This document shows positions 10,735-64,000 of a stretch of DNA of 64,000 bases, one piece after another. Where the stretch lies: assembly GCA_033032175.1 (NCBI GenBank), contig CM065316.1, forward strand, positions 2,636,115 to 2,700,114, written 5' to 3'. A program made the position numbers and the translations under genes. The stretch is from Saturnia japonica. Taxonomy: Eukaryota > Arthropoda > Insecta > Lepidoptera > Saturniidae. The notes below the pieces were generated by a model that did not search any database, was not told the origin of the DNA, and saw only the letters and a list, made by a program, of their open reading frames with translations. Numbering within the stretch: position 1 is the first letter of the stretch; each line of letters opens with the position of its first letter.

Positions 10735-10933
10735 TTATGGTTTATCTCCTAATCGAATCATTTCATTCAATGCTTCACTGTTACATGGAGTTCTTCCTGT
10801 TAATTTTGAGCAATCAAGTTCTTCAATTCGTATACCGTCCAAGGATCTTCCACGACTAAGTGCCACATAAGCTTGTCCAGCAGCAAACAATCGCGGACCC
10901 AAATAAATGACTGCATGATCAACTGTACAACCT
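10735..10933 (-). pseudogene. Helitron-type Pif1 helicase, C-terminal end
   Basis: On the minus strand an open frame reads GCTVDHAVIYLGPRLFAAG, QAYVALSRGRSLDGIRIEEL and TGRTPCNSEALNEM before a stop at 10735-10737. The 'VDHAVIYLG..LFAAGQAYVALSR' block is the last helicase motif of Pif1-type helicases, in the form carried by Helitron transposons. A Jockey LINE interrupts it at 10934. The upstream codons (TLSGMQGCTV) resume in the same frame at 12515 after the LINE and its duplicated target site. Everything upstream of that is lost or unrecognisable. Confidence 0.8.
10921..10933 (+). repeat. Target-site duplication, 5' copy, of Jockey insertion
   Basis: 'aactgtacaacct' precedes the truncated LINE. 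'actgtacaacct' recurs right after its poly(A) at 12515-12526. Exact match over at least 12 bp. Confidence 0.85.
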
Positions 10934-11964
10934 AGGCTAATTAAAATAATTCGCGACTATTTAACAGATCGCACCTTCCGCTATAGAGTGGAAGGTGAAT
11001 TGTCCACGCCCCGTCCAATACGCTCAGGCGTTCCCCAAGGTTCGATCCTGGCTCCTAGCCTATTTAACCTGTACGTCAGTGACCTACCTCGACTCCCGGA
11101 GGTCGAGGTAGGGCTATACGCTGACGATACAGTCTTATATGCCTCAGATAGGAATAGATCCCACCTCAGACACAAAGTCCAACGCTCCGTGACCACTCTC
11201 GGGAAGTGGTTTAACGAGTGGCGTATAGCCGTTAATCCCTCGAAGAGCGCCGCGATGCTCTTCGATGCGGATTCGTCACAGATACCGTGGAAGCTTAAAC
11301 CTGTTAAGCTCTACGATAATCCGATTCCGTATGTAAGAGAGACCAAATATCTAGGGGTAACCCTAGATAGTAGGCTCTCTTTTAGACCCCACATCCGTAA
11401 GGTTAGGAACAGGGCCGCGTGGGTCCTGGGCCGGTTGCATCCTCTGTTGTGTTCGGTGAGTAAAATGTCCACGCGACATAAGCTCACGCTCTACAAGACG
11501 TGTATTCGACCAATTTTGACATACAGTTGCGCCGTGTTCGCACATATGTCCGAGTCGAGTTTCAAACGGTTACAATCGATACAGAATAGGTTCCTCTATC
11601 GTCTCACCGGGGCCCCGTGGTATGTTTGAAGCGTAGATCTCCATAGAGATATGGAGCTTCCTTCGATACATGCCTACGTTAAACAGCTCTCCCGTTCGTG
11701 TTTCGACACCGCGTCGAACCACGCGAATCCGTTAATAAAAACAGCCGCCACTTATGTTCCGGCACCCACGGACATCCGGTGCAAACGCCGGCCGCGCAAT
11801 ATTTTTATTGATCCCGACGATCACATCGAAAATTCGAATAAATATTACACATCCGTCTCTCCAAACAGAGCGTGCCAGCGCCCACGCCCGTTAACCACCG
11901 TTCTCTCCGCAGAGGGCGGGCGGTCAATTTCGCTCCAGCACACCCGTCACGTCCACCCTCTCTA
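10934..11964 (+). pseudogene. Jockey ORF2 remnant: RT domain and C terminus
   Basis: In frame from the truncation point. Contains SGVPQGSILAPSLFNLYVSD and the catalytic LYADDTVLYASD block of a Jockey-clade reverse transcriptase, followed by the C-terminal region SIQNRFLYRLTGAPWYV. A single C-to-T change makes CGA (Arg in the other copy) a TGA at 11627-11629. A second lesion near 11889-11893 (missing base beside 'cccgttaacc') shifts the last 40 codons. It cannot support its own retrotransposition. Confidence 0.9.
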
Positions 11965-12483
11965 GCGGTAACCCAAGCCTAGGTCCGTTCCTCGGTGTGA
12001 AACCCTTGGGTCAGGCAACCGCCCGCGCGATACAAGTGACACTGTACGTGCATCACTTAGCTACCTACATACAACACTACACACGTATGAACATACACAC
12101 GTGCACACCACACAGGTACATAGGTTCTGTGAGGGACCTTTTTTTTTCTTTTTTTACGCTAGTTAGTTAGCGCTAGTTAGTGTAGAAACATTCCGATTAT
12201 TGAATACACATACGCACGGTTCCTTCCTTCCTCCCAGGAGGAAGGGAACGTGCCTATGTGTATATTTAGTTAGCTCGAATCGTAGGTGTAGGGATTCGAA
12301 TAGATCGCGACCTATTTGCGAACGCGACGACCGCCCGAGCCGAGGTCCGGCCACTTTGGCACCCTCGTGCGAGTCGTCCACAAAACTTTCGCGGCTGAGT
12401 GCCCTCTGCGCTCGCCCCCAAGTCCGGTGAAGCTGTAAAAGCCGCAGCGGCTTTAGGGCCCCTAAGGCTAACAGTGTAGTCAG

Positions 12484-20215: not shown

Positions 20216-23200
20216 ATGGGTACGTAAACCTTTACATATTCAACTTTAATCTATGAATATTTTATCGTATATTATAACGAATAGATTTTGTTTGTAAACA
20301 AATGCTAGCGTGTAAACAGATTGTTTCGCTTGATAACTATATCGATCCAACAAAGTCAAGGTATCAAGGTCCATTGATAAATTACTTTGGGTCGTTAGTT
20401 AAATTAGTTTCCGTATTAATTATGTTGTTATTGATTAGGCAAGTTCTGTGTTATAATGTAGTTATGTATTTGTTTAAATTCATCTATTGCTTTTCCATTT
20501 CATTTTCTTCAAGCTAATAATAACGTCATGAGAATCTTTTGTGCAGTTTTTTGCGCAAAACGAGTACAAGCCGGGAGTTTTTACTACATTAAAAACGTTG
20601 ATTATTCAAATTAGAATTCATATAACTCTTTGTGTTTTCTTCGAGTTTGTTGTTAGTTAAATAAATATAAAAGATTATTTCCTAAAACGTATCATAATTA
20701 ATAAACATCATTCACATCGCTTTATTTATAGTCGTTCATCTGCGTCATACGGTTCATACCTTTACTGGGAATTCGCGGTCTCGCTTCCGGGAATATTCCC
20801 CTGTTTCATTGAGTTCACTCCGTTAGCGAACTATGTGACCTTGATTGGAACAGACGCGACGTAAAATTTTCATTTCATTTAGTCGATTTTCAGTCATCCG
20901 TCTCTATCGTTCTACGCACATGTAATTTAATTCCCCAGATATATCTTCTGAAATTAATTATTTAAATTTTAGTTGATTACTGATTACTTCTTCTTTGGCC
21001 TCGCTTTTGCCTTTTACGTGGGGTCAGTTAATCCAATCATACGATACCATTTATTTCGGTCCTGTGCGTCATCTTTCTCATGTCCTTTTGGACCTTCGTC
21101 ATCCTTGTTTGAGGTCTTCCTTTTTCCATTCTTCTTTGTAGCCATGTAAAGGAACTTTTTCACGACATGGTCATGTGTTCTTCGGAGTATATGACCGTAC
21201 CATGCCAGTATGGACTATTTTCTACTTTATTCGCTTTTTCTGCAACCTTGAAGCTCCCTCTAATATGTTCGTTGCACACCTTACCTCTTCGTGTGACTAT
21301 TATATTGACTTTCAATTAGATTGCGCAATAAGAAATTTTCATACGTAACTCGGGGTATTTTTGGATCGTCATGTTCGGGGGCTAATAGGCAATAGCATGT
21401 GGAAAATGCAAGTTAAGGTAATATGAAGTCATACAAGGTTAAAAAGGAATTTTACCTCTTACATTTTAGACATACTCTAACTCTCTCCTCAGTACAAAGG
21501 TATGATTAAAAACTATGTACATATTTAAGTTTCTTTGCCTGAATATTTTTATGAGGTATCTTCTTCATAAAATTCTCTAACAAATTACATTTTTGGGTAA
21601 AGTTTCTGAGCTTAGATGTTTGTTTGTAGGTAGTCATCTCTGGACCTACTAATCCGATTCTATCAATCTTTCAGTGATAGCTACGTTCAGGCAGATGGTT
21701 ATATGCTATTTATTATTATTATTAACTTTTATATTGTAATTAACGCGTACAAAGTCGCGTGCGGTTTTTAACAACAAATATCTATGGTTACTGTTCCATT
21801 TATTGATAACTCTAAAAAAGTAATAGATATCTCTTATTAAAGGACTTTCACCATATGAAAGGACTTGAAAAATCGAAATGGATATTTTTGATTTTTAATT
21901 AAATTACCAGCTCTATTGACCTTAAGAATTTTGTAATAAAATGTTTTGATCATCAAGCGAATGAGATAGGTAATAAAGGTGTCGTTCAATTAATTTTAAT
22001 AATGATATTTGTACGTATTCCATCATACGCAGTAACAGTATCCTCGCGTGACCTACTACTCCATTAACTTAATTATCAGTTGTTTACTTGACTGCGCAGT
22101 TTTTCTGGTTCGATCGATGACACAAATTGCTTCACTGGTTTGATAGTGAACTGTTTTGCCATTTCTTTGGATAATTTCAATAGTCCATTTTCTTCTTCTA
22201 AGCTTCTTTAACCTTATTTATTTATTTTAACTATTTGTTAATTTTATATGTCCCTAAATTTGCAGCAAAATTTTGCTTTTGGTATGCGCAATTTTTCTGT
22301 TACAGGCTTAGCAACCCTACTTGAGAGACATTCGCTAGCTTTAGTAAAACTTTAAATAGTAAGATTCATATTATTAATACCGGTGCTGTGATGCAAATTT
22401 TATACTTTTAAGAATTACTTTATGACTCGCTGTAAAATCTGTGACGTAATGTCGACTGTCGCATTATCCGTACCGCACCATGACTCACTCACAGCAACAG
22501 CTGTATGTCTCATTGCATAAATATTGCTAATTCCTTAATGATAGTCTGTTATAATTATTTGAATGTGTTATCATGATGATTTCGATGTGTGTGGTTTGTT
22601 GGCTAGCCAGGATTTTTGTATTCTGCTATTTATTTGTTTATTATCAGTGGTGTGGTAATAAAAATATATTCATTTGTTTGTCCTATTATCACTAAGAGTA
22701 CAGGAGGAGCATTTTATTATATAAAAAGAAGAAAGTATAGAATGTATCGTATGTATGAGCTAACTAATTACGGTTTCTCAAGGAAAACGACAAAGATTTT
22801 CAGGTTTTTTTTTTTAATCGTGACACAGCAAATTGCTTCTAGTTACAACAGAGTTCAAACTTAGCATTAGATCGTTTGGCTGTATGCTTTTTTAAATATT
22901 ATAAGTAATAGAATAAATTCTTCGTCTCCAGATACGTTAAATATAAAACCGTTAAGTCAGGATGTTGAGTGGTCTCCGGAGGCGCCTGTGGGCGTTGGGG
23001 CCACTGGGGTCGCAGCAGCACGCGGTCAGGACCCCGCCGCACCTATCGTCTCTACATCAAGTGAAGAGCGCGCCATACGCCGCGTCACGGGCCGCTGGGG
23101 CGTCGAGTGGATGAGCTGACTCGGCACCGCGAACCAAAGCCAAGTCGGCCAATGGCCGGCCGACCACCCCCTGCCGCCACCCCGGTGGGGGGCACCCCGC

Positions 23201-26200
23201 CCGGCTTTGCACCTCTCCCTCCAACAGTACGAGGAGCTGGTCGCGAAAGCCGAGGCGCTGTTGAGCCGTCTCGTCGTCTCAGAAAATTATGACTCGATCA
23301 ATAACTTCTTGTCCCTTTATGATGGATATATGGCGTCTCCCGATCAAGAGCTGAAGGAATATTTCCCTAAATACAACCCTCCCATCCGTGCTCATAAGCA
23401 CACTTGCGTCGGCCTTGGTATGGAGGTGATCAAACGTCTCAAAGTCTTGGAGAAGGACTTCCCGGGTATAACGAAGTCGATGATGTTAGTATCGTGTGAC
23501 GAAAATATTCAGGATTTGGTTGATTATACGACCTCGTTCCCCGGACCCCAAGGTTTCCTGATTGAGACTGAAAAGGATCACGTGATGGTGGCGATTCATG
23601 TTAGAGTTGCCGGAAGACCTGGAATCTTTCTATCGGACTTGGGTTACCACATTTCTCGTGTGGTTACTGTAATGGCTGATCGATGTTACCCACATACTGG
23701 TAAGTTAAATAAACTTAGGTACTTTTGCAAATTCAATAAACGAACTCAAAAAGACGCAAAAATTAAGTTTTGCACGGCGTCAAATAGTTCCCCGTCTCAG
23801 CATGAGACAGTGTGCCTACAAGCGTGAATACTGCAGTGCTGTTGCTTTTTCTTTGATTCCCAGATGTCATACTTAAATATAATATAGCGTATGTCATTCC
23901 TACAATTAAGAGAAATCTAACGACACCTCGTATGCTAAAATCCATCAAGCCGTTTAGGCTACAGAGTAACCCAAAGAAATAGACTTACATACGCTCGAAA
24001 ACATAACCTTTAACGCAGTCGAGTAAAAACTAATACATATCTATACTGAATAATGCATGTTTACAATCATCGTATAAATGGATAGATATTTAAAATGATC
24101 AAATTTTTCTGTTACCCATAGTTTAAAAAGCACGACATCAACCGCTATTGTTGGCGGGCAAAATTTAAAAGTCAAACCGGCCATTTTATGCTCCGTGTGC
24201 TTTGGTTTTGGGCACTCTTGTTCTAGAACATTCTATCAGACTTTTCAATAACATATTTAATTCGCAGGCTGGTTTATGCAATCTGACGAGCCGCATTGCC
24301 GCAAGGAATACAAATACCAGTTCAACCTGAACAACACCAACTATGTGGAATGGCACGAGAGGGAAACCAGAGGAGCTGCTATCAAGGAACGCCTATCCTT
24401 AATCTATGTCGCTAGGGCTTACTTATCTGCTGTCAGCGTCACGGAGAAGAGAAACTTGGTGTGGGATCTGAGGTAATTAATTCATTATGTAGCAGGACAA
24501 ATTGAAGGCACTGTTTCTGATGGTAACAATTCAAAAATAACGGTAACCATCGAAAGATTCGCAAACCACCACCGGTCAACGCTGGATATGCACTGGCTGA
24601 TCCGAAACGTGACAAACCAAAAGAGTGTTATTGACAAGTTTATCGGCATGTACATGGTGGTCGCGACCCAGTCGGGTACAGACCTCTACCACCCGTCTGG
24701 ATTAATGGCTGCTCCCGGAACGCGAGATGCCTAAGCGTGGCCACTAAAGCGGATGTTATACTTGTTGTATGGTGGCCGTGATTCAGTCGGACAAAATTTT
24801 CATGGCCATCTCCAGACCTCTCTTTTATGTATTTTTACTTGAAAGAAGATTGACTCTCAAGTGTGACAGTCGGAACACACCAATGGCTGCCTGGGTACAA
24901 TTAGATTTTCATTTTATAGGACCTTTTTGTTAAATGTTCGCTAGATGTTCGCTAGTTCGGATGTATAAAATGCCATAGTGGTACGATGTTTTCCCTGGAA
25001 AGTTCTGGATCCATTAAAAGATTAAGATTAAGTTCTTTATTTGAACTTACGTTTGGAACATTAATAAATGTGGTAGGTACCGTGTACGGACATAGCGTCG
25101 ACAGACGTGACATCGAAAGAAAACATCGTGATGAAACCATAGCACGGTGGTAGGCAAGGCTTTTTGTGCCATTGTCAAGTAGAAAATCTTAAGCACATTA
25201 TAGGAGTATTTCGGCAGCTGCACTTGGGAGCCAGAGCGTGTCACCATCTGGGCCACATTATCCCTTAATATAAGCTTAAATTGTAGCCAAACGCTGAACT
25301 TATAAAACGTCTTCAAACACAATCACAACACTAGTAAAAATATTCTACTTTCTTGCCGTTGTGCGCGCGAACAATATCTCATTACCTACTTCAAAGTACA
25401 TCAGAAGGTAACGGATAGGTAATTGTTTTGTAGATAGATACATACTGTAGGTTATTGTTATTTTTATCTACATTAATGTGTGTAATTCTTTATATTATAT
25501 TATCATATATGTACTCAAATCACTAAATACTAGATGTGCTAGCGGTTTTGCCCGCATAAGATTATATGATTATTGCTTCATCTTTAACGATTTAGATATT
25601 GTATTGCAATTTGCATGAAGATTTCCCATCCGTGACAAGGAGGGTTTCAATTCGGTTATTAACGCTCTCCTATGCAAAATTTCCTTAAGCCTTAAGAATT
25701 TTATTGTTGCATCGTTAATTTAGATGTAAAAGGTATTAATCAATTGCTGCTTTTCACTGGCAAGTCGACATGATTATTATAAACGAATTTGTAAAAGAAT
25801 TCTTTATTAACCGACGTCAAAAAATTTATAGGTGTCCAGAAAAGAAAGAAATTATTAATTTCTTTATGAGCCGATTTGAACTTTTTTTAAATTGTAGGTA
25901 ATAAATCTTTATCAAATCGATTAAATTTTAAATATATTTTTTCCATTTTTCCAGGAGTCTGTTAGCAAGAGATCCAAAAGGCCGTCTAACCGCTGGTATA
26001 TACTTCCCTTTGAAACTGAAAGACCAGCAGTTCACGATGTTCTTCGACGCCAACAACGGGAAACAGAGGAAGAAACTGAAGTTCGAAACGTTCTTAAAAT
26101 TACAAACGGTAAGTTCTTATTTTATTTTTTTTACAAAACTCATGCTATTCCCTATAGTTGCCACTGATGAATAAATAAGGCTGTGACAATACTGATGGTA

Positions 26201-27520
26201 ATGTTGTCTCAAAATCTTTTTTAAATTTCCATAGTATTGTAGAAGTATTGTAATTGGCCATTAAATGTGTAACTTAGAACTCTTGTGTTCTTATGTCACG
26301 AAATATTTTATGAGATTGACCTATATCATGATTTCAGATAGGCAAAAATATAATATATAAATCTAACGGAAAGGTTCGGTATGTTTCTTGTCCAAATCCT
26401 TGGGCTCGAGCCAATTTCTTTGATGTTATTTTTGATAATACTAAATTGGTATCTATGGAGATAAACAACTTTTGAAAAAGCTTAAATCTAATTATATTGA
26501 TAGTATTATAGAATTACTTTTTATAAATAATTATGACTACATTTAGCCTGTGGAGAGAAATCTACAATTCTGAAGAAACCATAAATATTGTATCTACTAT
26601 TAAAAAAAAGTGTGTGTGTATGTCAACTCCGACGCACGACTAGAGTTTGAACATGCAAAGAGGTGATTGATTGACTGACAGGCTGAGTGAGTGATTGAAT
26701 GGTTAATGATTTATTTAAAATCAAGATGATGTATGTATACACATCGTAACGCTTTTTGTTAACGCTAAACGTAACGCTTTTATAAATTTCACACCTTGTA
26801 AAATTCCTATACCCCCCGGTATTAAATCGATTCATAGAGAGTAAACACCAAAAATCCGATACCTACTGAACCAGAGAGTAACTGACGAATAGATTGATTA
26901 GGAGTCATTGGCGTGATCCAGATCGGACATATTGGGGTATTTTATTTTATTTCGTGAACCTACGTTATTTCTTATCAAATTTTGACAGGTTTTCCATATA
27001 TTTTTCTGACAAAATGTCAAAAAATATTCATCAAAGAAAGTTATCTGACGATTGAAAAATCGGTCTATAGATGATTCTTTTTTTTATGAAAAGGGGGATA
27101 TCTTAAAGTTGGTCCCATTTTCAATACCTTCGACTTCGAAGATACACTAGGGAATTCCTCAAAATAATTGAAGTTTGTTTTGTTTTTGTTATAAATTGTA
27201 AAAAGTTATATTTAATTAACATTTTTGTTCTATCTAGTTCACGCACAGAACTCTCACTGTCGAATTATAAATTGCGTACCTATTGTAATTTATATTAATA
27301 AAGTTTTTATTTTTATTTAATAAGTATCATTTTTATTTTATTCCAGATCCCCGACGAAGTAGTAGATGAAGTTGAACAGTGCAACGATCAACTCCGCTTG
27401 AGGGATGGAGAATTGCTCTCCGTCCTCAAACGCCTGGCGACCATCATGGCCGACGAGGAATATATGGCCGAACTTCTCGAAATCAACACTAAGATCGTTC
27501 AACTATCTGCTGGCGCTTAA
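20216..27520 (+). CDS. Uncharacterised insect protein, paralogue 1; in-frame TGA
   Basis: Inferred exons: 20216-20219 (ATG G, before a gtacgt donor), 22932-23699, 24268-24472, 25955-26108 and 27347-27520 (TAA). All junctions are GT-AG and phases agree (1, 1, 0, 0 with the last two exons; G|AT makes Asp2). The frame gives 63 codons, an in-frame TGA at 23117-23119, then 370 codons. Conserved blocks after the TGA: LHLSLQQYEEL, HTCVGLGMEVIKRL (Cys about 160), DHVMVAIHVRVAGRPGIFL (His about 218), SDLGYH (Asp about 237), VTVMADRCYPHTGWF, DEPHCRKEYKYQFNL, YVEWHERETR, RDPKGRLTAGIYFPL. The last exon is a helical tail. The Cys-His-Asp order and a hydrophobic strand after the His recall arylamine N-acetyltransferases, but spacing is looser (58 and 19 residues), so function is inference only. 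No signal peptide or membrane segment is evident. Exons 2-5 are firm; exon 1 is moderate. Confidence 0.8.
20222..22930 (+). other. Intron 1 of gene 1 (2.7 kb)
   Basis: Bounded by gtacgt and 'ttcgtctccag'. Holds AT-rich sequence and, at about 20985-21300, a GC-richer dispersed-repeat-like block ('tttggcctcgcttttgcc', 'ttttacgtggggtcag', 'actttttcacgacatgg'), probably a decayed LINE-associated repeat. No nested gene seen. Confidence 0.45.
23117..23119 (+). promoter_or_regulatory. In-frame TGA, candidate readthrough stop, gene 1
   Basis: Context EWMS-TGA-CTC. A perfect 7-bp GC-rich hairpin (23144-23150 with 23158-23164, 7-nt loop) starts 25 nt downstream. UGA followed by C is the most leaky stop context known in insects. 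The same TGA-CTC is at 61243 in the paralogue. Confidence 0.65.
23701..24266 (+). other. Intron 2 of gene 1
   Basis: 566-bp AT-rich intron between gtaagt and 'ttcgcag'; nothing else recognised. Confidence 0.6.
24474..25954 (+). other. Intron 3 of gene 1
   Basis: Contains a GC-richer tract at 24540-24800 with an imperfect direct repeat ('atggtggtcgcgacccagtcgg' near 24655, 'atggtggccgtgattcagtcgg' near 24770). Also a short family B-like scrap near 25540. No coding frame I trust. Confidence 0.45.
26109..27346 (+). other. Intron 4 of gene 1, with a family A repeat
   Basis: Contains a reverse family A copy at about 27060-27190 ('cccattttcaataccttcg', 'tcgaagatacactaggg'). The remainder is AT-rich with no gene. 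Confidence 0.5.
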
Positions 27521-27690
27521 ACATCTTTTCGATCCAACAAACACAATACTGTCTTAAGCTTTAGAATTGCAAATGCTATTCAACATAAATTAGCAATGAA
27601 TTAGCGCTTAAACATCTTTTTGATCCAACACACAATTCTGTCTGAAGCTTTAGAATTGCGAATGCTATCCAATATAAATTAGTAATTATT
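27513..27690 (+). repeat. 91-bp tandem duplication at gene 1 stop codon
   Basis: 'gcgcttaaacatctttt' begins at 27513 (containing the TAA stop) and again at 27604. The two 91-bp units stay alignable to about 27690 ('gatccaaca', 'ctgtct.aagctttagaattgc', 'aatgctat.caa.ataaatta'). The second unit lies in the 3' UTR. Confidence 0.85.
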
Positions 27691-27699
27691 GCTAATACA

Positions 27700-28130
27700 G
27701 TATTAAAAACTTATCGGATTATTGCTTATAAAGTTGGATTACTGTCGTCGTATTATGTATTTTTATAACAAAAGTTCACGTTATTTGTTAGTCGCAACAT
27801 TTAGAAATTCATTTAATTCAATTTACATATATTTACATAAATATTCATTTAGTCGTGACCGTGTTATTAGCACATTCGTTTACCATTCATTTAGTTGCTT
27901 ATAGAGTAATTGGGTCTTATATGTGTATTATAAATATCAACCTATTCTGAGATTTCTGACGAGATGTGACTTCTTACATGGGAATTAAAATCATTAAAAA
28001 ATATAAAGAAATCGTTTCATTAATTTCAATTAAAAAGAAAACTCGGCATTTGTTTAGTATAATAACAACAGTCTTGGCCTCTGCAAATTCCGCTACTAGG
28101 TGTAATGACCATACAGAATAGTACATTATG
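27700..28130. other. Gene 1 3' flank, nothing recognised
   Basis: AT-rich. No clear AATAAA close to the stop codon, so the polyadenylation site was not placed. Confidence 0.35.
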
Positions 28131-28136
28131 GTACAA

Positions 28137-28242
28137 GTGTGTAATGTTGGTGATTACCGCTGAGGCGCCATTGAGACCCGAGCCGTTAGGTGAGGCCGTG
28201 AGGGTCTTAAGAGAGCCGAGGACGGTAATCACCAATACACAC
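28137..28242. repeat. Imperfect palindrome, 20-23 bp arms
   Basis: Arms at 28137-28159 ('ttggtgattaccg' core) and 28223-28242 ('cggtaatcaccaa' core) enclose a GC-rich centre, itself with 'gagaccc'/'gggtctta' pairing. A 106-bp cruciform or a small MITE. Confidence 0.6.
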
Positions 28243-28449
28243 GTGTATCATACGACGTTTTTCAACACACTTGTGAAGAAAATAATAATAAAAAAACATT
28301 TTTCCTTGGAGTTTTCAGGTAGTAAACTTTGCATAACGTTAAGGGCTTCACATCTTATATCGGGCGGTGTACAACATAAATCATTTTCTTCATAACTAGT
28401 ACTTGTAGACATTTTAATTAATAAATAACTAAAATTTCAACAGTGACGA

Positions 28450-29265
28450 GTTGTGAATTTTTTTTCCCTATGGCGGGAAAAATTAATCAGTTTGCGCGCG
28501 CATCTAACAATGGCGATCGGCCATAGACTAAAGGAATGAGATTTCTTTTTTTTTGGCTTTCCGCAGATAGCGTTTTAGCCACGTATAAAATGGGGAATTT
28601 AAAGTTTTCTTTATTACAGAGAAAACAAAAGTTATATTTGAGTGAAAGTTTTATTTATTAAACACGTACAAGTTGAAATTATCTATTTAAATACGAAGTT
28701 GTATGAAATGAGCAAGCAATAGGTACATTAATTTATTTGTTCTATTGATCTTTATCTTTTTTGTATGGAAACTTTTTTAAGAACAAAGCAACTCGACCAA
28801 TAAAATAAAAAAAAAAACTCTATAACTCACTTGTGAATAATAGTAATGAAAAAGTCACAGTTTGATTACAGGTGTCATTATGTGCCTAATTGCGGTGATA
28901 TTAAAGCCACTTTATGAGCAAGTGTGTTGAAAAATATAATTATGTATTTATAATTTAAAGCTTCATAAGTATGTTATTTAAAAAAAAAATTGAAATGGTG
29001 CAGTTTTAAAGGAAGAAAGAGGGTAAGACGAAATTATGATTTCATTTATTTATTTTACATAATATTATGGAAGTATAATCTATCGGAACTGCTATTATCT
29101 CACTCGCGCTCTGTTTGGTCGTCCGGGCTTAGAACGACAGCAACAGACTTCTATTCAAACGTCGTGCCGACTGAGTTTCCTCTTTAAATATTCACAGATT
29201 TAACTAACATCTATGCTAACAAACGTGATTCATGGAAATGGTTTTTGACACAATCTTAGTAAATA
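28450..29265. other. No gene seen
   Basis: AT-rich. No coding signal was recognised. Confidence 0.35.
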
Positions 29266-31326: not shown

Positions 31327-34089
31327 CTAGGCTTGGGTTACCGCTAGAGAGGGTGGACGTGACGGGTGTGCTGGAGCGAAATTGACCGCCCGCCCTCTGC
31401 GGAGAGAACGGTGGTTACGCGGGCGTGGGCGCTGGCACGCTCTGTTTGGAGAGACGGATGTGTAATATTTATTCGAATTTTCGATGTGATCGTCGGGATC
31501 AATAAAAATATTGCGCGGCCGGCGTTTGCACCGGATGTCCGTGGGTGCCGGAACATAAGTGGCGGCTGTTTTTATTAACGGATTCGCGTGGTTCGACGCG
31601 GTGTCGAAATACGAACGGGAGAGCTGTTTAACGTAGGCATGTATCGAAGGAAGCTCCATATCTCTATGGAGATCTACGCTTCGAACATACCACGGGGCCC
31701 CGGTGAGACGATAGAGGAACCTATTCTGTATCGATTGTAACCGTTTGAAACTCGACTCGGACATATGTGCGAACACGGCGCAACTGTATGTCAAAATTGG
31801 TCGAATACACGTCTTGTAGAGCGTGAGCTTATGTCGCGTGGACATTTTACTCACCGAACACAACAGAGGATGCAACCGGCCCAGGACCCACGCGGCCCTG
31901 TTCCTAACCTTACGGATGTGGGGTCTAAAAGAGAGCCTACTATCTAGGGTTACCCCTAGATATTTGGTCTCTCTTACATACGGAATCGGATTATCGTAGA
32001 GCTTAACAGGTTTAAGCTTCCACGGTATCTGTGACGAATCCGCATCGAAGAGCATCGCGGCGCTCTTCGAGGGATTAACGGCTATACGCCACTCGTTAAA
32101 CCACTTCCCGAGAGTGGTCACGGAGCGTTGGACTTTGTGTCTGAGGTGGGATCTATTCCTATCTGAGGCATATAAGACTGTATCGTCAGCGTATAGCCCT
32201 ACCTCGACCTCCGGGAGTCGAGGTAGGTCACTGACGTACAGGTTAAATAGGCTAGGAGCCAGGATCGAACCTTGGGGAACGCCTGAGCGTATTGGACGGG
32301 GCGTGGACAATTCACCTTCCACTCTATAGCGGAAGGTGCGATCTGTTAAATAGTCGCGAATTATTTTAATTAGCCTATCGGGGACTTCAAAGCGGTACAA
32401 CTTGTAAATCAATCCCTCGTGCCAGACCTTATCAAAGGCCTTGGCCACGTCGAAAAAGACCGCAAGTGTACGGCGGGGTTTATAAAGTTCAGCAAAATTA
32501 AATGCAACGTGCTCCGTGAGGCGGTGCACTTGATGAGTGCAAGAATATCTAGCACGGAAACCGAATTGCTCAGGCGGATAGAGGTCTTTCTCCTCTATTA
32601 TTGGCTTGAGACGGTTCAGAAGGATCCGCTCGTAAATTTTCCCTAACGTATTTAGGAGACTGATCGGGCGATAGCTGTCGGGAAGCGACGCGCTCTTGCC
32701 GGGCTTACGGATACCTATGACTATTGCCTTTTTCCAGGCGGCTGGAAAATGGCAGTGGACTATGGCTACATTGAAGATGCAGACCAATAGAGCTATGAGG
32801 CGATCAGGAAGAAGCCTAAGTACTTCATTCCTGATCCCGTCGGGACCTGGTGCTTTTCTGAGCTTAAGGCTTTTTATAATGAAAAGAACCTCCTCAGACG
32901 TGACTGGGGACAGGGAGGCTGTCGCGGGGAGCTTATCCAGCTCCCGCACGCATCCATCGATACCCTCGACCCGGTCGGTATTTGCATCGACACTGTTCGG
33001 AGAGCACTGGCTCTCCAAACAAGTGGCGAGGCACTCCGCCTTGTCGCTGCTATCGAAGGCGAGTGGTATACCGGGACCCCTCTCGAGGGGGGGCATAAGA
33101 TAAGAAGCCTCTATTTTGAGGCTGCGAGCTAGTTTCCAGTAAGCCAGATGCGACGGCCTTAGCCCTTCGACGAGGGCGTCCCATCTGTGACTCCTGAGTT
33201 CTAATATGCGGGCTCTAACCGCTCTCTGAAGCGCGCGTAAGCGTGCGCGGTTTTCCTCGGTCGGATAGTGGTCGTGGTCGATCGCGAGATCTACATCCGC
33301 AACGGACCCCAATACGTCCGGGATCCTATCTAAACTGGACGAGGACGGCCTGTCCGCAAGATAATGTTTTAACTTAGCATAGTCAACCACTTGGACCGAA
33401 GGAGGGCTAGAGTCGTCTGGTTGACCTAGCTGCATGATGACCGGACGGTGGTCGGAGTCGAGCTCGTGTACGACCCGAATGAGTCGTAACCGAAGCGCGA
33501 TACCTTTAATGAGAGCTACATCAAGCACTGTCGGCATACAGTTGTCTTGAAAGTGGGTGGGAGTGGGTGGCGCTATGACATCAAAGTTTAGCACGTTCGT
33601 TAGCTCTTCGAGTTTAACACCATTTCTGGAGTCTCTCCAATTGCCAAACGAAGTGTGTCCACAATTGAGGTCACCCGCTATAATGACCGATTCACCGAGC
33701 GAAAGTAGCTTTTCTAGGTCAGACCTGAGAGGCACTTTCCTCGGCGAGAGATAAACTGAAACTAACGTTATGGACGGGTGGTCGGTCATTCCTAGTCTAC
33801 ACACGGATACTTCCATATTGGTAAGTATCGGAGGATCTACCGGCGTACAATATAACGATCGTTTGTAATAAATGAGAGTGCCGCCCCCGCGGCCGGCCCG
33901 GTCATTTCTTACAATATTGTAGTTCGCGATTTTAGGATCACGTTTACTACGCTTTAAGAACGTCTCCTGCACTAAAAGAACATCTACTTGGTGATCTTTA
34001 AGAAAGGTCGCGACGAGATCACGCTGCGGAAGTAGGCTTCGCGCGTTAAAAAATGAAAGATTTAACGCTTTCGGTTTAAACTTAGCCAT
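31327..34089 (-). CDS. Jockey ORF2: AP endonuclease and reverse transcriptase
   Basis: 920-residue frame starting MAKFKPKALNLSFFNARSLL, 9 nt after the ORF1 stop codon. Residues about 1-220 are an exonuclease-endonuclease-phosphatase fold endonuclease that nicks the target: VQETF (metal-binding Glu), AGDLNCGH, DHRPV (catalytic Asp-His near 215). Residues about 400-700 are the reverse transcriptase: SLKLRKAPGPDGIRNEVL, YRPISLL, VFFDVAKAFDKVW (first catalytic Asp), SGVPQGSILAPSLFNLY, LYADDTVLYA (catalytic Asp pair). The C terminus has the usual SIQNRFLYRLTGAPWYVR region. No internal stop. The short intergenic gap fits reinitiation-type translation after ORF1. Assignment to the Jockey clade is from the overall block pattern. 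Confidence 0.93.
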   Translation of the reverse strand: MAKFKPKALNLSFFNARSLLPQRDLVATFLKDHQVDVLLVQETFLKRSKRDPKIANYNIVRNDRAGRGGGTLIYYKRSLYCTPVDPPILTNMEVSVCRLGMTDHPSITLVSVYLSPRKVPLRSDLEKLLSLGESVIIAGDLNCGHTSFGNWRDSRNGVKLEELTNVLNFDVIAPPTPTHFQDNCMPTVLDVALIKGIALRLRLIRVVHELDSDHRPVIMQLGQPDDSSPPSVQVVDYAKLKHYLADRPSSSSLDRIPDVLGSVADVDLAIDHDHYPTEENRARLRALQRAVRARILELRSHRWDALVEGLRPSHLAYWKLARSLKIEASYLMPPLERGPGIPLAFDSSDKAECLATCLESQCSPNSVDANTDRVEGIDGCVRELDKLPATASLSPVTSEEVLFIIKSLKLRKAPGPDGIRNEVLRLLPDRLIALLVCIFNVAIVHCHFPAAWKKAIVIGIRKPGKSASLPDSYRPISLLNTLGKIYERILLNRLKPIIEEKDLYPPEQFGFRARYSCTHQVHRLTEHVAFNFAELYKPRRTLAVFFDVAKAFDKVWHEGLIYKLYRFEVPDRLIKIIRDYLTDRTFRYRVEGELSTPRPIRSGVPQGSILAPSLFNLYVSDLPRLPEVEVGLYADDTVLYASDRNRSHLRHKVQRSVTTLGKWFNEWRIAVNPSKSAAMLFDADSSQIPWKLKPVKLYDNPIPYVRETKYLGVTLDSRLSFRPHIRKVRNRAAWVLGRLHPLLCSVSKMSTRHKLTLYKTCIRPILTYSCAVFAHMSESSFKRLQSIQNRFLYRLTGAPWYVRSVDLHRDMELPSIHAYVKQLSRSYFDTASNHANPLIKTAATYVPAPTDIRCKRRPRNIFIDPDDHIENSNKYYTSVSPNRACQRPRPRNHRSLRRGRAVNFAPAHPSRPPSLAVTQA

Positions 34090-34098
34090 TGAAAGGCC

Positions 34099-34922
34099 CT
34101 AATTTTTATTACTCGCCTCGCGATCGAGACGTTGTAGTGTCTCTACGAGGCGGGGGAACGCGCAAGCGGTCTTGATGAGACCGAAGCGCTCCAAATGGTC
34201 GTTGTATTCGATGAGCTCGCGGATATCGCGCTCGCGGGTGAGCAGTATCATTAGGTCGTTACTATTGACGACAGTGTTAGCGGGCGCGCGGGGCGCGGGA
34301 ATATCCATAGCCATAAGGGGCTGTGGATTGGGGCGGCGGGGGCCCCATGCGTTCTGCGATGAACGCACGGGTTGGGGTTGCACCACGCGGGGTGCGGAGG
34401 GGCCGGCGGCGGCCGGGAGCTGGCGCGGGACCGGCAGCGCGGGAAATTCCCCTGACGCCAGCAGGGGTTGCGCTTTGATGGCTGAGGCGGGGGGCGCCGC
34501 CCGGGGGTCCGCCTGCCTCTGTGTACGTGGCCGCGTGGTACGCGGGGCCTTGGGGCAACCGCGATAATTCGCGGGATGCCCCTCCTCCCCGCATAACACG
34601 CAGCTCGGGGGGACGACGGAGTCACGCTCGCGCGTGCACTCCCGTGTGGGGTGGTCCTCTCGGCACTTTACGCACCGCGGACGAGAATGACGGTTACGGG
34701 CAGCGTGCCCGTACAGCTGGCAGTTGTGGCACTGCGCAGGCTGGTGGTTTTTGTATGGGGGCTCCACGTTAATCCCGGAGAGCCCGCACACCGTCTCTAG
34801 CTGGAAGACTACCATTTGTAGTGGCCGCTTATCTTTACTGTACATCCGGTGTACTTCCCGGATGGGATAACTTTGCTCCTTGAGCGAGGAGCACACCTCC
34901 GACGGGTCGAGCTCCACCGGAA
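34099..34922 (-). pseudogene. Jockey ORF1 (Gag-like), N terminus missing
   Basis: The frame enters from the 5' truncation point without a real start (the first possible codon is GTG at 34917). It begins with the PRE/C2HC-associated region (PIREVHRMYSKDKRPLQMVV), followed by CCHC knuckles. The first reads CHNCQLYGHAARNR, where the fourth zinc ligand is Arg. The next are CVKCREDHPTREC and CVLCGEEGHPANYRGC. A Pro/Ala-rich segment and a short charged C terminus follow, ending TAG at 34099-34101. In intact elements this nucleic-acid-binding protein packages LINE RNA. Roughly the first half is absent. Confidence 0.85.
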
Positions 34923-35100
34923 TGCTCGTTGGCCCCAGTAGTGCGCCTTTTATATTGTTTGCCGGAGAGCGAGACGGACGATGGCGTCTCTATCTGTACT
35001 GCTCATTACCAAACTTGGGTGTGGTCCGGTAACCGCGGTAACGCGTCGTGGTTGCACTATCGCTGTCTCTGTCTATTATTATTATTACTTGTATACAGAA
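34923..35100. other. GC-rich block right of the Jockey insertion
   Basis: Begins with the second 'tgctcgttggc' and continues the GC-rich character of 30190-30799 ('ggagagcgagacggacgatgg', 'ggtccggtaaccgcggtaacgcg'), then decays to AT-rich DNA. Confidence 0.4.
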
Positions 35101-40780: not shown

Positions 40781-43703
40781 CTATTTCAACGTGTTTTTTG
40801 ATTTTAATTCTTTTAAGAAAACATTCCTATTTGACTGGAATAAATCAATATGACTAAACTTCGTGTCATACATGTTAAAACATCTTTGTAAAACAGAGTT
40901 CTTAGCATAATTGTGTTTAACTGGCGGTGGTGCAAATAAGCGCGGATTTCGAATAATTTTTGTATGTGTTTTGAAATTAATCCTATTCACTAGTTCGGGG
41001 CAATCAATATTGTTGTTCAAAATATCGTATAATAATCTCATGTCGAAGACAGATCGTCATTTTGATAAAGAAGTTAAATTGTAAAAGTCTAAATCAATTA
41101 AGTATGACTTATGCTCGTTATTAAATTTATAATTTAGATATCTCAGGAATTTACTTTGAATGTTGTCTAGACTAGTCTTATGTGTGATATAATCTGGTGA
41201 CCATATTGGCGAAGCATAATCGAGATAGCTCCTAATGTATGTAAAATATAATCGTTTTAGTGAGTTTAAGTTTACAAAAGGCCTTGCAACTCTGCAAATG
41301 AATCCAAACATTTTTAAAGCTTTCTGACGTATGTAATCATAGTGATACGTGTAAAGCAGTTTGGAATCCATCATCACCCCCAAATCAGGAACGACAGAAA
41401 CCCTCTGCACTGGCAACATGTCAAGTTTATAGATATAATTTATAGGTTGATGTTTTCTAGTGTATGATATTACATTACATTTCTTTACATTTAAATTTAG
41501 TTTATTTAACTTGCAATAATCACAAAGTCGTAAAAGTTCATTCTGTAACATGTGGCAGTCATCAATAGTACGAATAGCGCTGAAAATTTTGGTATCATCG
41601 GCATACATAAGGTACCTGGCGGAGGTGAAGCAAGAGGATATATCGGAGATATAAATGTTAAAAAGCAATGGTCCTAGGTGTGAACCCTGCGGTATACCTG
41701 AAGGAATAGTTTGAAAGCCAGAGAGAAATGCCCCAATTCGAACCGCCTGATTTCTATTGTGAATGTAGGATTTAAACCACCTCAAGAGATCACCGTGTAC
41801 ACCTATCCTGTCAAGCTTCAGTAAGAGGATATCATGATTAATACGATCAAAACACTTAGAGTAATCGGTATACATGACATCCACTTGATAACCTTGATCC
41901 ATAGCTGTAGCTATGTAATCTGTAAATACTGCTAGATTGGATAGTGTCGATCTTCGTTTCATAAACCCATGCTGTTCCAATGATATAGACAAAGAAATGG
42001 AGCTGTATATTTGATCGTGCACCAATTTTTCAAACAACTTACTAAAAACAGACAATAGGGATACTGGCCGGTAATTCTCAACATTACTCTTGGATCCAGC
42101 TTTATGTATAGGAACAACGTATGCTTCTTTCCATTTACTAGGAAATACGCCTGTTTTTAGTGACTTATTAAATATAACCGTTAGAGGAACTACTAAGGAT
42201 TTGATGCACTTTTTTACGAAGTATGGAGGTATTTTATCTGAGCCAGCTCCTTTATTACAGTCAATTTTACGAATATATTTTTCCACCTCTGCTTCGGATA
42301 TTCTCAATTTGCCTATGTTATTCAATTTGTTAACATTACTGACATTGTCAATTTTTGCATGCAGTGTATCGTGGGAAAAAACTGATTGAAAATAATCAGA
42401 AAACAAGTTACATATTGCTTTACCGTCAGTGGCTGTTTTTGAGCCATACTCAATATGTGCAGGAACAGATGGGGCATGTTTCAAATTTTTTGCATACTGC
42501 CAGAATCTTTTAGGGTTATTTTGGATGGCTGCTTCACTTTTCATGACGTACCCATTCCAGCAGGCGATCTGCATTTTTTTAAATCTTCTTCTCAACAGAG
42601 AAAATGTATCATAATCCGTAGGTATACCAAACTTCTTCCATTTCTTATGAAATTTCTCCTTTTCTTTGACAATACTCATTAGTGGCTTAGAATACCATAG
42701 TGGAAATTTTTTAGGGAAACTTTTATATTTAGGTACATGTGTATTAATCACCGTACCAAATCTATTGTAAAGAATTATGACTGAACTTTCAACTGTTTCT
42801 TTGCTGAAATCGAGTTTCCAGTGAAACGAGTTTTAGGTAATTATTAATTTCATCATAATTAGCATTTTTATATTTGTAAATAGTTATTGGTATCATTTTT
42901 AGCAGTTTAATATTTATGTTAGTAAATTTCAATGTCAAAGCAGGGTGATGGTGTATATCTTCTTTGGATATAGAGAAGTGAGAACGTCGCACCTCTACGT
43001 CCGTATTGCAAAATACCAAATCTAGTAAACGGTTATTGTCGTTCATTATTCTGTTAAATTGACTCAATTCCCATTTTGATAATAGTTCCGTAAATAGTAA
43101 TTGATTTTCGCTAAAATTACCTAATTCCAAGGAATAGCCATCAATATCGTCAGCGTGCCATCTGATATGAGGCAAGTTGAAGTCGCCTAGCAATAATAAG
43201 TAATCATTATTAATTAACAAACGACAATTATTCAGATAAGAATTGAGATATCCTAACAACTCGTCGTGTGAAGATCCTGATACAGGTAAATAGACACAAA
43301 TTATATGGAGATTTCTATTAGTACTTATATTGTGTGATTCGATTCTTAAATGAAGTAGTTCACAGTTTTTGGCATTTCGGATATCATCCGAATATATACG
43401 AATTGCACCTAGCTCGCGACGCGTCAACATCATAACTCCTCCGCCAACCTGTTTCCTAGCGCCCCCTTTGCGTCTCCCTACTGAGTTGCTAGAACTGCTA
43501 GAACTGCGATCACACCGATAAATATCATAACGTGCATCAGACAGCTCAGAATCGTATACACTAGATACCAGCCAACTTTCACAAATAGCTACAACATCAT
43601 GATTTTGATTTAACATGCCTAGCCAAAACTGTTGTGTCTTGCCACGTATACTACGTGCATTTTGAAAATAAACTGAAAGGTTATTAACCATGGTAGAATA
43701 CAT
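40781..43703 (-). pseudogene. CR1-like ORF2: endonuclease and RT, one frameshift, one stop
   Basis: From 43703 the frame gives LSVYFQNARSIRGKTQQFWL, 'VAICESWL' (catalytic Glu), 'LLLLGDFNLPHIRW' and 'HHHPALTL', an AP-type endonuclease. A frameshift near 42825-42835 moves the frame. The RT part then reads 'KKCIKSLVVPLTVIFNKSL', 'YRPVSLLSVFSKLFEKLVH', 'YTDYSKCFDRINHDILL' (first Asp), 'SGIPQGSHLGPLLFNIYISD', 'YLMYADDTKIFS' (Asp pair), then 'YASPIWSPDY'. A TGA at 41057-41059 interrupts 'SLSK-stop-RSVFDMRLLYDIL'; the frame continues intact to 40781. Only these two lesions are needed to break the protein. Confidence 0.88.
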
Positions 43704-61087: not shown

Positions 61088-63965
61088 AGCGTGAAAAACC
61101 AACATCATTGTTGTTAGAGAAGCAGCGTGAGGCGCTCGTAAAGGGCGCCGAGCCAAACCCAGAGCGACGAGATGAGTGCGCACCGGCGGAGGCCGAGGCG
61201 GCGACGCCCCGCGTGGGCAGGTGGGGAGCAGAATGGCCGAGTTGACTCACCCAGGATACGCGAGTGACCCACCTATCGGCACTACCGCCCGCGCGGTGGG
61301 GCCCGCCCAGAGCCGCGCTGCATCTCACCCTGCAGCGACACGAGGAGTTGGCGACGCGCGCCGAGGTAGTCCTACGCCGTCTGCTCGTCACCGACAACTA
61401 CGACTCAGTCAGCAACTTCATCTCGCTGTACGAAGCGTTCGACCGGCGCACGACCGCCTTAGCTGAGCTGTACCAACTCTACGAGCCGCCGATACGGTCC
61501 AAGAAGCACACGTGCGTCGGTCTAGGGCTCGAGCTGATCAAACGATGGCGAGGTCTCCAAAAAACCTTCCACGGTTTCGAAACGGCGACTGCGCTGTTAT
61601 CGTGTGAGGAGGCGGTCGTCGACGTGCGCGAGTACGTCACCAGCGGGGACAGTCCAGCAGCGATGGCCACGGCTGAGAAGGAACACGTGATGGCGGGCGT
61701 GCAGATCTGCGTCGACGGCCGCCCGGGGATTATGCTAGCGGATCCGGGGTACCACGTGCCAAGGATTGTGACTGTGATGGCTGATCGGGCGTATCCTCAT
61801 ACTGGTGAGTATTTTAGAAAAACATTGTCACAAACTAGCGAAAAAAGCTTCACAAAACCGGACCATCAGTACTCCTTTGATTATATACCATGAGTTATGG
61901 AACACAATCAAACGATTCGTTCTTTTATACATACACTCGCTGAAACGCTCAGAAACTAAAATGTACAAGTATATAAATAAAACAAAACGTTTGATTGATT
62001 TAAAAAAAATGAACCTCCCTAAATTAAAACTAACGTTAGATCTGAAAACCGTCGTAACCCTAAAGAGAGCAACAGGAAATAGAAGATAGCCGTTGTGAGC
62101 TTTAGATTTTCCGCAGATATCTCACGGAATATCCCAACAGAAGCAGCAGATGCACCTAATATAAATTCCCCATTATAGTCTTAGGTCACCTATCAGAATT
62201 TAATAGAAAACAATTAGTGTGAAGAGCTGGAGAAATAAAGCCCGAAATAGACCGGTCTGGAGACATGCTGGACCAGGACAAGGCCCACCCGCGACTGTAG
62301 AGCCTCAGACGATGATGATGACCAATCAGAATATCCCAGCAGCTACACCTGATAGAAAGTCCCCATTCTAGGCTCCGGCACCGATCGGAATGTCCCAACA
62401 CTTGTACCTGATATCATGTCCCCATTCTAGGCTTAATGTGTCATTCCACCTTCCAACGTATTTCAAACAATATTATTCCACAGGCTGGTTCACGCAATCA
62501 GACGAGCCACACTGCCGGAAGGAGTACAACTATACATACAACCTTCAAAACAGCAGCTACGTGGAGTGGCATGAGAGGGAGACGAGAGCCGGCGTCGTGA
62601 AAACGCAAACGTCCCTCATTTTCGTAGCTCGACCTTACCTCGATGGAGTCAACGTGACCGAGAGGAGGAATCTTGTCTACAACTTCAAGTATGTTTTACT
62701 TGTACCGAGTTTTTGAGTTGAACTACACAATATCGTCGATCAGGAACACGCGCACATCGTGCTCACCCCCCCGTTATTATAAAAACGGAAATGCTTATTG
62801 TGGATTATGCTCGCTGTTTTTTTTTAAGAACTACATTAATTTGATATATATCTTATGGTTTACTCCGCGCGAAAGCCATTTAAACGCCTGAATCGATTCA
62901 ACAGTTTATTTTAATTGCGCGGAACCCTAATAATTTTTCTAAAATAAAATTAGCTCAGTTACCACTTATAACATCAGCTATCTGTCGGTGAAAATCCCGT
63001 CAAAATAGGTCTAACCGTTTCGGTGATTAGCCGGAACAAACGGACGAAAATTTTACAATTTTTTTTTGTTATATGGTACCGTTATATACTTTCATTTATG
63101 CATTTAGTTAAAAGCTGTTATTTTAGACATTACATTTTTACTCAGACTTTAATTCCATTATAATTATGTATTGACAAAACACAAAACGATTAGTTTTCCG
63201 TTATTGAAAGCTATTATACCTTATGCATAAGTTAATACAAATGCTTCCATTACAATTCTACATTAATGATTGGTTTCCGACGCGATTGGAGTACAACGGA
63301 GACCAATAATTACTCTAGGGTACCTAACGATATTTTTTTTAAAACAGATTGTGTAACTCACCTGAAAAATGTGGTTTTAGGCCATTTAAGAAACGCAATA
63401 ACGATTTGAATTAAAAAACTCATTGTTTTTTTATTATTATTCACCAGAAGTCTCCTCTCCCGTGACCAGAAAGGTCACCTGATAGCCGGCCTGTACTTTC
63501 CAGTTGGTGACCGAGGAAAGGACGCTCAGTTCACACTCTTCTTCGACAACGGCACAGAGAAACGAAAGATCAAATACAAGTTCAGTACATTCTTCGAACC
63601 AGCCGATGTGAGTCTACCTACATACATTATATTGGACAACTTTTTCCCTTTTAAATTAATGTTTAGTTACATGAGATGATAGGACGTTTCCTAGACTTCA
63701 TCCAGTGCCTTTTCTTATTAAACAATTTATTATATTGTTCGATCATTTAAATTCATAGTGATTGTGGGGAGAAGCTAATGTCAATTTATTTTTACAGATA
63801 CCAAAAACAATCACAGAGGAGATCAAGCTATGCAACGCGCAAATGAACTACAAAAAGGGCGAGTTACTTACCATTATATGCAAACTGGCGAAAGTGATGG
63901 CCAGCCAGTCCTTCATCGAGCAGATGCTAGAGATCAACGATGAGATATGCCGCATGAGCCTCTGA
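61088..63965 (+). CDS. Uncharacterised insect protein, paralogue 2; in-frame TGA
   Basis: Exons: 61088-61804, 62484-62688, 63448-63607 and 63798-63965 (TGA stop). Phases match gene 1 (1 at the start, then 1, 2, 0); the 205-bp exon is identical in length. The first listed exon needs one base from an upstream exon not found. It encodes a charged 51-codon leader ending GRWGAEWPS, the in-frame TGA at 61243-61245, then 363 codons. Conserved blocks: ARWGPPRAALHLTLQ, HTCVGLGLELIKRW (Cys), EHVMAGVQICVDGRPGIM (His), ADPGYH (Asp), VTVMADRAYPHTGWF, DEPHCRKEYNYTYNL, YVEWHERETR, RDQKGHLIAGLYFPV, FFDNGTEKRKIKYKF, and a helical tail LTIICKLAKVMASQSFIEQM. Codon third positions are much more G/C-rich than in gene 1. 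The candidate triad and WHERE block are invariant, implying shared activity. Function unknown; N-acetyltransferase-like fold is speculative. Confidence 0.8.
61243..61245 (+). promoter_or_regulatory. In-frame TGA, candidate readthrough stop, gene 2
   Basis: Context EWPS-TGA-CTC. A hairpin with stem 61282-61288/61293-61299 (7 pairs including one G-T, loop CCGC) lies 36 nt downstream. Position and the six bases TGACTC agree with gene 1. Confidence 0.65.
61805..62483 (+). other. Intron of gene 2 containing degenerate minisatellite
   Basis: Intron from gtgagt to 'attccacag'. Holds the three degenerate repeat units described separately (62125-62434), interrupted by about 130 bp that resembles the 3' end of a LINE frame ('gacaaggcccacccgcgact', 'gatgatgatg'). 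Confidence 0.5.
62125..62434 (+). repeat. Degenerate tandem repeat, interrupted
   Basis: Units start 'gaatatcccaacag' (about 62128), 'gaatatcccagcag' (about 62329) and 'gaatgtcccaacac' (about 62388), each continuing 'acctgat....gtccccattctaggct'. Unit length about 58-65 bp. An insertion of about 130 bp follows the first unit. Confidence 0.6.
62689..63447 (+). other. Intron of gene 2 with a family B repeat
   Basis: 62880-63170 is a forward family B copy ('catcagctatctgtcggtgaaaatcccgtcaaaat', 'tttatgcatttagtta'). The remaining sequence is AT-rich. Confidence 0.55.
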
Positions 63966-64000
63966 CAGCGTGTGTCAAATGGCCGCCAAGACAAAATGGG

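What the first reader, a model, noticed from the sequence alone, without database searches (positions are those of the whole stretch)
22932..23230. Gene 1: coding sequence conserved on both sides of an in-frame TGA
The exon is open for 61 codons, hits TGA (23117-23119), then stays open in the same frame for 193 codons. It splices on to a conserved protein. Compared with the paralogue at 61090-61340, codons before the TGA (GRWGxEWxS) and after it (PPxRWGxPRxALHLxLQ) differ mostly at synonymous sites: CGC/AGG, GGC/GGA, GAG/GAA, AGC/AGT before; CTG/CTA, CGC/AGA, TTG/CTG, CAC/CAT after. The TGACTC itself is identical. No AUG lies between the TGA and the conserved domain. A perfect 7-bp hairpin starts 25 nt after the TGA. 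This is the signature of functional stop-codon readthrough, well known in insects, in a gene I cannot name. It would make a 63-residue short form and a 434-residue long form.
Basis: partly seen in the sequence, partly recalled or inferred. Interest (0 to 1): 0.95.

Follow-up and report, generated by a model that had tools for sequence, protein, structure and literature searches.

The report
Insect enzyme hidden behind stop codon
In this moth gene, and apparently in its relatives across the insects, a whole enzyme-like protein can probably be made only if the ribosome reads through a stop codon that comes after a short, unusually well conserved peptide.

The parts
20216..20219 (+). Gene A exon 1, coding part (ATG + first base of codon 2), donor gtacgt
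   Evidence: One of two ATGG|GT[AG][AC]G sites found on the + strand; phase fits exon 2; homologous models start MDTLNIKPL. Inferred, no transcript for this species seen.
22932..23699 (+). Gene A exon 2: end of first ORF, TGA, linker, first half of the NAT-like domain
   Evidence: Open frame on both sides of the TGA
23090..23116 (+). Stop-anchored motif GRWGVEWMS of gene A
   Evidence: the motif ends 85 of 86 short-ORF hits
23117..23119 (+). In-frame TGA (followed by CTC) proposed to be read through, gene A
23144..23164 (+). 7-bp hairpin behind the TGA of gene A; not found in B
23405..23407 (+). Codon of the invariant Cys (HTCVGLG), putative nucleophile, gene A
   Evidence: 57 of 57 in alignment A4
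23579..23581 (+). Codon of the invariant His (EKDHV), gene A
23636..23638 (+). Codon of the invariant Asp (DLGYH), gene A
24268..24472 (+). Gene A exon 3
   Evidence: tblastn
25955..26108 (+). Gene A exon 4
27347..27520 (+). Gene A exon 5 with terminal TAA
49190..49193 (+). Gene B exon 1, coding part (ATG + first base), donor gtgagt
   Evidence: homologous models start MEREKP. Inferred.
61088..61804 (+). Gene B exon 2
61216..61242 (+). Stop-anchored motif GRWGAEWPS of gene B
61233..61235 (+). Out-of-frame ATG overlapping the motif of gene B (ATGGCCGAGTTGACT); does not lead into the domain
   Evidence: the corresponding MAELT stands at or near the start of two louse models, P0219 and P0215
61243..61245 (+). 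In-frame TGA (followed by CTC), gene B
62484..62688 (+). Gene B exon 3
63448..63607 (+). Gene B exon 4
63798..63965 (+). Gene B exon 5 with terminal TGA

Best explanation
The gene is a conserved insect stop-codon readthrough gene. One mRNA carries a short first ORF (44-110 residues as predicted in the 85 hits; 63 in gene A, 53 in B). It ends in a nearly invariant peptide, GRWGxEWPS, followed in the window by UGA-CUC. Most ribosomes stop there and release the short peptide. A fraction decode the UGA with a near-cognate tRNA and continue in frame through a variable linker into a domain with the arylamine N-acetyltransferase (NAT) / transglutaminase-like fold and an invariant Cys-His-Asp set. In both window genes no usable in-frame AUG lies between the stop and the domain, so readthrough would be the only ordinary way to make it. 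Shown here: the sequence anatomy, the fixed position of the stop in relatives, the continued frame, and the predicted fold. Inferred: that ribosomes really read through, at what rate, which amino acid is inserted, and that the domain is an active acyltransferase-like enzyme.
For: Window: both tandem paralogues keep TGA CTC with an open frame on each side. TGA-C is the context favoured by readthrough genes (PMC7826183, passages). Relatives: 85 of 86 hits of the first-ORF profile end exactly at GRWGxEWxS; the other, P0201, lacks that end and looks like a chance match. Frame: ten Logan-sourced, moth-like proteins (P0021, 41, 42, 43, 46, 47, 50, 51, 52, 62) run EWxS-W-L into the domain. P0043 is identical at 60 of 61 aligned residues upstream to P0122, which stops there, so the codon is most simply TGA read under table 4. 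Of 19 NCBI 'partial' models that I picked out, 11 begin with L; eight of these, all hymenopteran, share a well conserved linker (LETAE-WCQP-GQARGPWIR with few changes). Both ORFs in one RNA or locus: P0164 and P0251 share a contig length of 4131, P0139 and P0066 one of 1795; Sergentomyia has the two halves as genes 143320 and 143310 on contigs of equal length, 296605 (P0154, P0220). No AUG: the first in-frame ATG is codon 71 (A) or 140 (B), the latter past the Cys at codon 90. Against selenocysteine: no SECIS match in 22000-29000, and Lepidoptera sequenced by 2008 lacked selenoproteins (PMC2500217, passages). Fold.
Against: No ribosome profiling, peptide or RNA-seq evidence was available. Relatives were seen only as proteins, so 'W = TGA' and 'L follows the stop' are inferences outside the window. 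Only 41 of the 86 short hits have E<=1e-3; the three Drosophila ones are at 0.025-0.56. That search was restricted to short proteins, so it could not see a relative with a sense codon at the site. Of the 265 listed proteins scanned, 23 longer ones contain GRWG: 10 read W-L, 11 leave the motif at or before the S (gene models whose DNA I could not see), Culicoides P0246 reads EWPS-PGQG, and P0074 is an unrelated match. Eight of the 19 'partial' models do not begin with L. The first 20 codons after the TGA are poorly conserved between A and B. The hairpin is not shared. Poor but in-frame bypass acceptors exist (23145, 61265).
Confidence: 0.85

Rival explanations
1. Dicistronic mRNA: the short peptide is one cistron and the domain is translated separately by re-initiation, an IRES or a non-AUG start behind the TGA.
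For: The linker right behind the TGA is poorly conserved between A and B. Some Diptera models give the long ORF an early start (P0097, P0229), although gene callers for contigs may also accept GTG and TTG (recalled). Dicistronic genes are common in flies (PMC4528330, passages).
Against: In A and B no in-frame AUG gives an intact domain. The frame is that of the first ORF in both paralogues and in ten moth-like W-L proteins. The hymenopteran linker is conserved from its first residue. The out-of-frame AUG overlapping the stop in B does not enter the domain.
Confidence: 0.08
2. Alternative splicing: an intron or alternative first exon removes the TGA in the productive mRNA.
For: Several gene models skip the TGA (P0001-P0005, P0053, P0057, P0058, P0069). 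In-frame acceptors for exon 1 exist at 23145 and 61265, and a pyrimidine-rich AG lies at 23228 / 61336. Ant, bee, wasp and planthopper models (P0087, P0091, P0214, P0213) carry different N-termini.
Against: The skipped stretch differs between species. The acceptor implied by P0001/P0004 (AG before TGG) reads CAATGG in window A. The in-frame acceptors have 8 and 10 pyrimidines of 20 with 0 and 3 T, against 11-17 and 7-13 T at the eight used ones. 23228/61336 lie behind the conserved PLP..RWG stretch and, by position arithmetic, are out of frame with exon 1. At least six short forms begin with the residues expected of exon 1 joined to exon 2 (P0121, P0126, P0135, P0138, P0139, P0147) and still stop at the TGA.
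Confidence: 0.05
3. A-to-I editing turns UGA into UGG (Trp) in the mRNA.
For: Ten proteins carry W at the codon.
Against: Those ten look genomic: nine run into apparent intron sequence after CYPHTG and P0021 reads through it. ADARs disfavour a G 5' of the edited A (recalled). Short forms that look spliced still stop there.
Confidence: 0.01
4. Selenocysteine insertion at the UGA.
For: UGA only.
Against: No SECIS among Rfam matches in 22000-29000 or 60000-64000 at E up to 10 (B's 3' UTR lies outside the window). Selenoproteins were not found in the Lepidoptera, Hymenoptera and Coleoptera sequenced by 2008 (PMC2500217, passages), yet the gene family persists there.
Confidence: 0.01

Closest known systems
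Functional stop-codon readthrough genes of Drosophila, Anopheles and Bombus (kelch, headcase, oaf, Synapsin, drifter and hundreds of PhyloCSF candidates)
   Same: UGA with 3' C, open frame and coding conservation on both sides, stop position conserved, insect host
   Different: PMC4528330 section 23 says that, with very few exceptions, annotated readthroughs extend an annotated polypeptide at its C-terminus, and notes that the search behind them was biased to such cases. PMC4999894 (passages) found no Pfam homology in the extensions and much disorder in fly ones. Here the first ORF is 63 codons and a whole folded domain follows (it too has no Pfam match, but models as a fold).
Arylamine N-acetyltransferase (NAT, Pfam PF00797 by recall) and relatives such as geldanamycin amide synthase
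   Same: Predicted fold: 24 of the top 24 and 23 of the top 23 VIA rows are NAT or this relative. Invariant Cys at a helix start, then His and Asp on or next to strands
   Different: No Pfam hit above cut-off, no profile similarity to E. coli NhoA (probability 1.8%), 6-14% identity in the superpositions, N-terminal tail added
Drosophila CG1969 / Anopheles AGAP010769
   Same: Insect N-acetyltransferase with readthrough (PMC5100048, passage)
   Different: There readthrough adds a peroxisomal signal to an annotated protein. I compared no sequence.
Nascent-peptide-assisted recoding or arrest at stops (AMD1 tail, antizyme)
   Same: A conserved peptide is read just before an unusual decoding or termination event
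   Different: No nascent-chain effect was tested here; these papers were seen only in a search listing

Membership tests
Functional stop-codon readthrough gene | In-frame first stop followed by an open, conserved coding frame up to a second stop | tested here: met
   for both paralogues (the first 20 codons are weakly conserved between them); ten W-L proteins
Functional stop-codon readthrough gene | The stop codon itself and its leaky context (TGA C) are conserved | tested here: met
   TGACTC in A and B; stop position conserved in 85 of 86 short-ORF hits. The nucleotide context is seen in the window only.
Functional stop-codon readthrough gene | No splicing, downstream AUG or SECIS explains the second ORF | tested here: inconclusive
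   AUG excluded for an intact domain; no SECIS found for A; splicing only weakly possible, but not tested with RNA
Functional stop-codon readthrough gene | Ribosome footprints, reporter or peptide evidence beyond the stop | not testable with these tools
   No expression data held
Selenoprotein | SECIS element in the 3' UTR | tested here: not met
   Rfam scan of 22000-29000, E up to 10, no SECIS; B's 3' UTR not in the window
Arylamine N-acetyltransferase | NAT fold | tested here: met
Arylamine N-acetyltransferase | Cys-His-Asp catalytic triad | tested here: inconclusive
   C84, H138, D157 of P0208 invariant in 57 of 57 with fitting secondary structure; residue-level superposition was not available
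Arylamine N-acetyltransferase | Detectable family profile (Pfam/NCBIfam) | tested here: not met
   No NAT model among hits (2 stretches; 9 proteins) or 89 (4 proteins); hhalign against NhoA negative
Arylamine N-acetyltransferase | Acetyl-CoA-dependent arylamine acetylation | not testable with these tools
   No assay

The most novel reading that the evidence does not exclude
The GRWGxEWPS peptide at the end of the first ORF acts in cis, in the ribosome exit tunnel, to weaken termination at the UGA. An entire NAT-fold enzyme family, present across the insects, would then be expressed only through this nascent-peptide-programmed readthrough.
Probability: 0.22. Interest if true: 0.88.

Novelty: new variant of a known kind. 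Interest (0 to 1): 0.77.

Why it matters
Annotation pipelines evidently stumble over this gene: they skip the TGA with differing mini-introns, start at a downstream Met, mark the model 'partial', or split it into two genes. Many members of a family of predicted enzymes therefore seem to stand in databases in truncated form. If right, it would be an unusually old readthrough event, shared by many insect orders, and one in which readthrough makes the main folded domain instead of adding a tail. The invariant peptide ending exactly at the stop gives a direct, reporter-ready test of whether the nascent chain programs readthrough.

Tried and rejected
Hairpin as a conserved stimulator: rejected, because B lacks it and z-scores are weak. 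Selenocysteine: no SECIS match. Downstream AUG: excluded for an intact domain in A and B. Third copy in the window: tblastn finds only A and B. DNA of relatives: scans of viral contigs and genome contigs gave no relative; metagenome contigs has cap 0 and was not tried. Sequence-level link to NAT: none. Foldseek's own ranking put lipocalins first, with no hit at E<=0.001; these cover only the barrel at low TM, so I went by the VIA realignment. A bacterial promoter scan of 100 bases and a search for shared upstream exons by translated comparison (best matches repeat-like) led nowhere.

Literature: searches showed, judging from their listings, no report of this gene; five motif strings occur in none of the held papers. 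Supplementary candidate lists of the readthrough papers could not be read, so the gene may be listed there unnamed. PMC3227100, which one search lists as the 2011 Drosophila/metazoa readthrough paper, is not held. PMC13170385 and PMC3840789 were seen in passages only and say nothing about this gene there.

Same-contig pairing of short and long ORFs rests on equal longest-contig lengths in the hit tables (4131, 1795, 296605), not on seeing the contigs.
Full report
What is there. Gene A has an exon at 22932-23699 whose frame is open for 61 codons, hits TGA (23117-23119) and stays open for 193 codons to the donor. Three more exons complete a protein ending in TAA at 27520. A diverged tandem copy, B, repeats the pattern at 61088-63965 with TGA at 61243. 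Both second exons begin in the same phase. Two ATGG|GT[AG][AC]G sites were found on the + strand, at 20216 and 49190, one upstream of each gene and with similar flanks (about 0.5 expected, my arithmetic). This gives first ORFs of 63 (A) and 53 (B) residues. tblastn finds no third copy.

Codon evidence inside the window. Just before the TGA, 3 of 10 aligned codons are identical, 4 synonymous and 3 changed. Codons 21-45 behind it give 8, 8 and 9 of 25. The first 20 codons after the TGA (2, 4 and 9 of 15 aligned) and most of the first ORF (10, 11 and 30 of 51 in all) are not well conserved between the paralogues. This supports coding on both sides, but taken alone it is modest.

Relatives of the first ORF. 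A profile of N-terminal peptides (A1) searched against 5.8 billion proteins gave 86 hits at E<=10, 41 of them at E<=1e-3. 85 of 86 end exactly in GRWGxEWxS; the other, P0201, does not. Named sources include Drosophila mojavensis, willistoni and virilis (E 0.025-0.56), Haematobia, Sarcophaga, Sergentomyia, Xenopsylla, Plutella, Danaus, Pararge and Parnassius. With P0201 dropped and counting from the stop, S, W, E, G, W, R and G at -1, -3, -4, -6, -7, -8 and -9 are invariant in 85 of 85, whereas beyond about -20 nearly all columns carry 3-4 bits of entropy. The query profile contained this motif, so its presence is conditioned on the search; that it sits at the very C-terminus is not, apart from the length limit of the search.

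Relatives of the second ORF. Searches with the long form gave 137 and 469 hits (120 listed each). The named ones are insects: Lepidoptera, Trichoptera, Hymenoptera, Coleoptera, Diptera, Hemiptera, lice, roaches, termites, stick insects and Orthoptera (orders by recall from the organism names). Annotators handle the start inconsistently: differing mini-introns across the TGA (P0001-P0005, P0053, P0057), a downstream Met (models of 300-331 residues), or 'partial' models. Of 19 'partial' models that I picked out, 11 begin with L (eight hymenopteran, three lepidopteran) and eight start otherwise. In Sergentomyia and Plutella short and long halves are separate genes on contigs of equal length. Among all 265 listed proteins, 23 longer ones contain GRWG: ten show EWxS-W-L and continue into the domain, eleven leave the motif at or before the S, P0246 reads EWPS-PGQG, and P0074 is an unrelated match. 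The ten are Logan-sourced, unnamed and moth-like. P0043 among them matches P0122, which stops there, at 60 of 61 residues. TGA read under table 4 explains both readings.

Alternatives. The first in-frame ATG behind the TGA is codon 71 in A and codon 140 in B, and in B this lies past the putative catalytic Cys at codon 90. Bypass splice sites in frame with exon 1 are poor (8 and 10 pyrimidines of 20, against 11-17 in the eight used acceptors). A better AG at 23228/61336 lies behind conserved coding sequence and is out of frame with exon 1. No SECIS was found for gene A, and Lepidoptera sequenced by 2008 lacked selenoproteins (PMC2500217, passages). Separate initiation at a non-AUG codon remains the main rival.

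Mechanism and place in the literature. The arrangement fits programmed readthrough. TGA-C is the favoured context (PMC7826183, passages), and hundreds of insect genes are thought to be read through (PMC5100048: abstract, three sections and passages). Two features set it apart. FlyBase curators note that annotated readthroughs extend an annotated protein with very few exceptions, adding that detection was biased that way (PMC4528330, section 23), and earlier-studied extensions showed no Pfam homology, the fly ones being largely disordered (PMC4999894, passages). Here most of the protein lies behind the stop. And the best conserved piece of the first ORF abuts the stop, which suggests, without proving it, a role of the nascent chain or C-terminus. 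Searches showed no report of this gene in their listings; supplementary lists were not readable.

Verdict. Readthrough: likely (0.85). Kind known, architecture unusual: new variant of a known kind.

Noticed in passing
31327-34989 (- strand); 41057-43709 (- strand); 10919-11965 (+ strand): Non-LTR retrotransposon-like ORFs, including a 923-residue reading frame that looks like endonuclease/reverse transcriptase, the two larger sets between the two genes (family recalled, not searched).
   Followed up: no
61233-61247: The codons of EWPS-stop in gene B contain an out-of-frame ATG (ATGGCCGAGTTGACT) overlapping the TGA, with A at -3 and G at +4. Two louse models (P0219, P0215) carry the corresponding MAELT at or near their start.
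   Followed up: partly
P0247, P0252, P0253, P0260, P0264 and P0246: In mosquito-like proteins and Culicoides an extra stretch (such as G.S.RRLT[DE]P) precedes the linker; whether it directly follows the stop could not be seen.
   Followed up: no
Chilo evm_007325/007326, Tuta O0L34_g60/g61, Hyposmocoma LOC113229130/LOC113229129: By their serial gene numbers the A-like and B-like copies are neighbours in several Lepidoptera, so the duplication that kept the stop codon in both copies seems old.
   Followed up: partly
P0191, P0216, P0226, P0228, P0230: Members of this family appear among proteins of JGI metagenome contigs, presumably insect host DNA.
   Followed up: no
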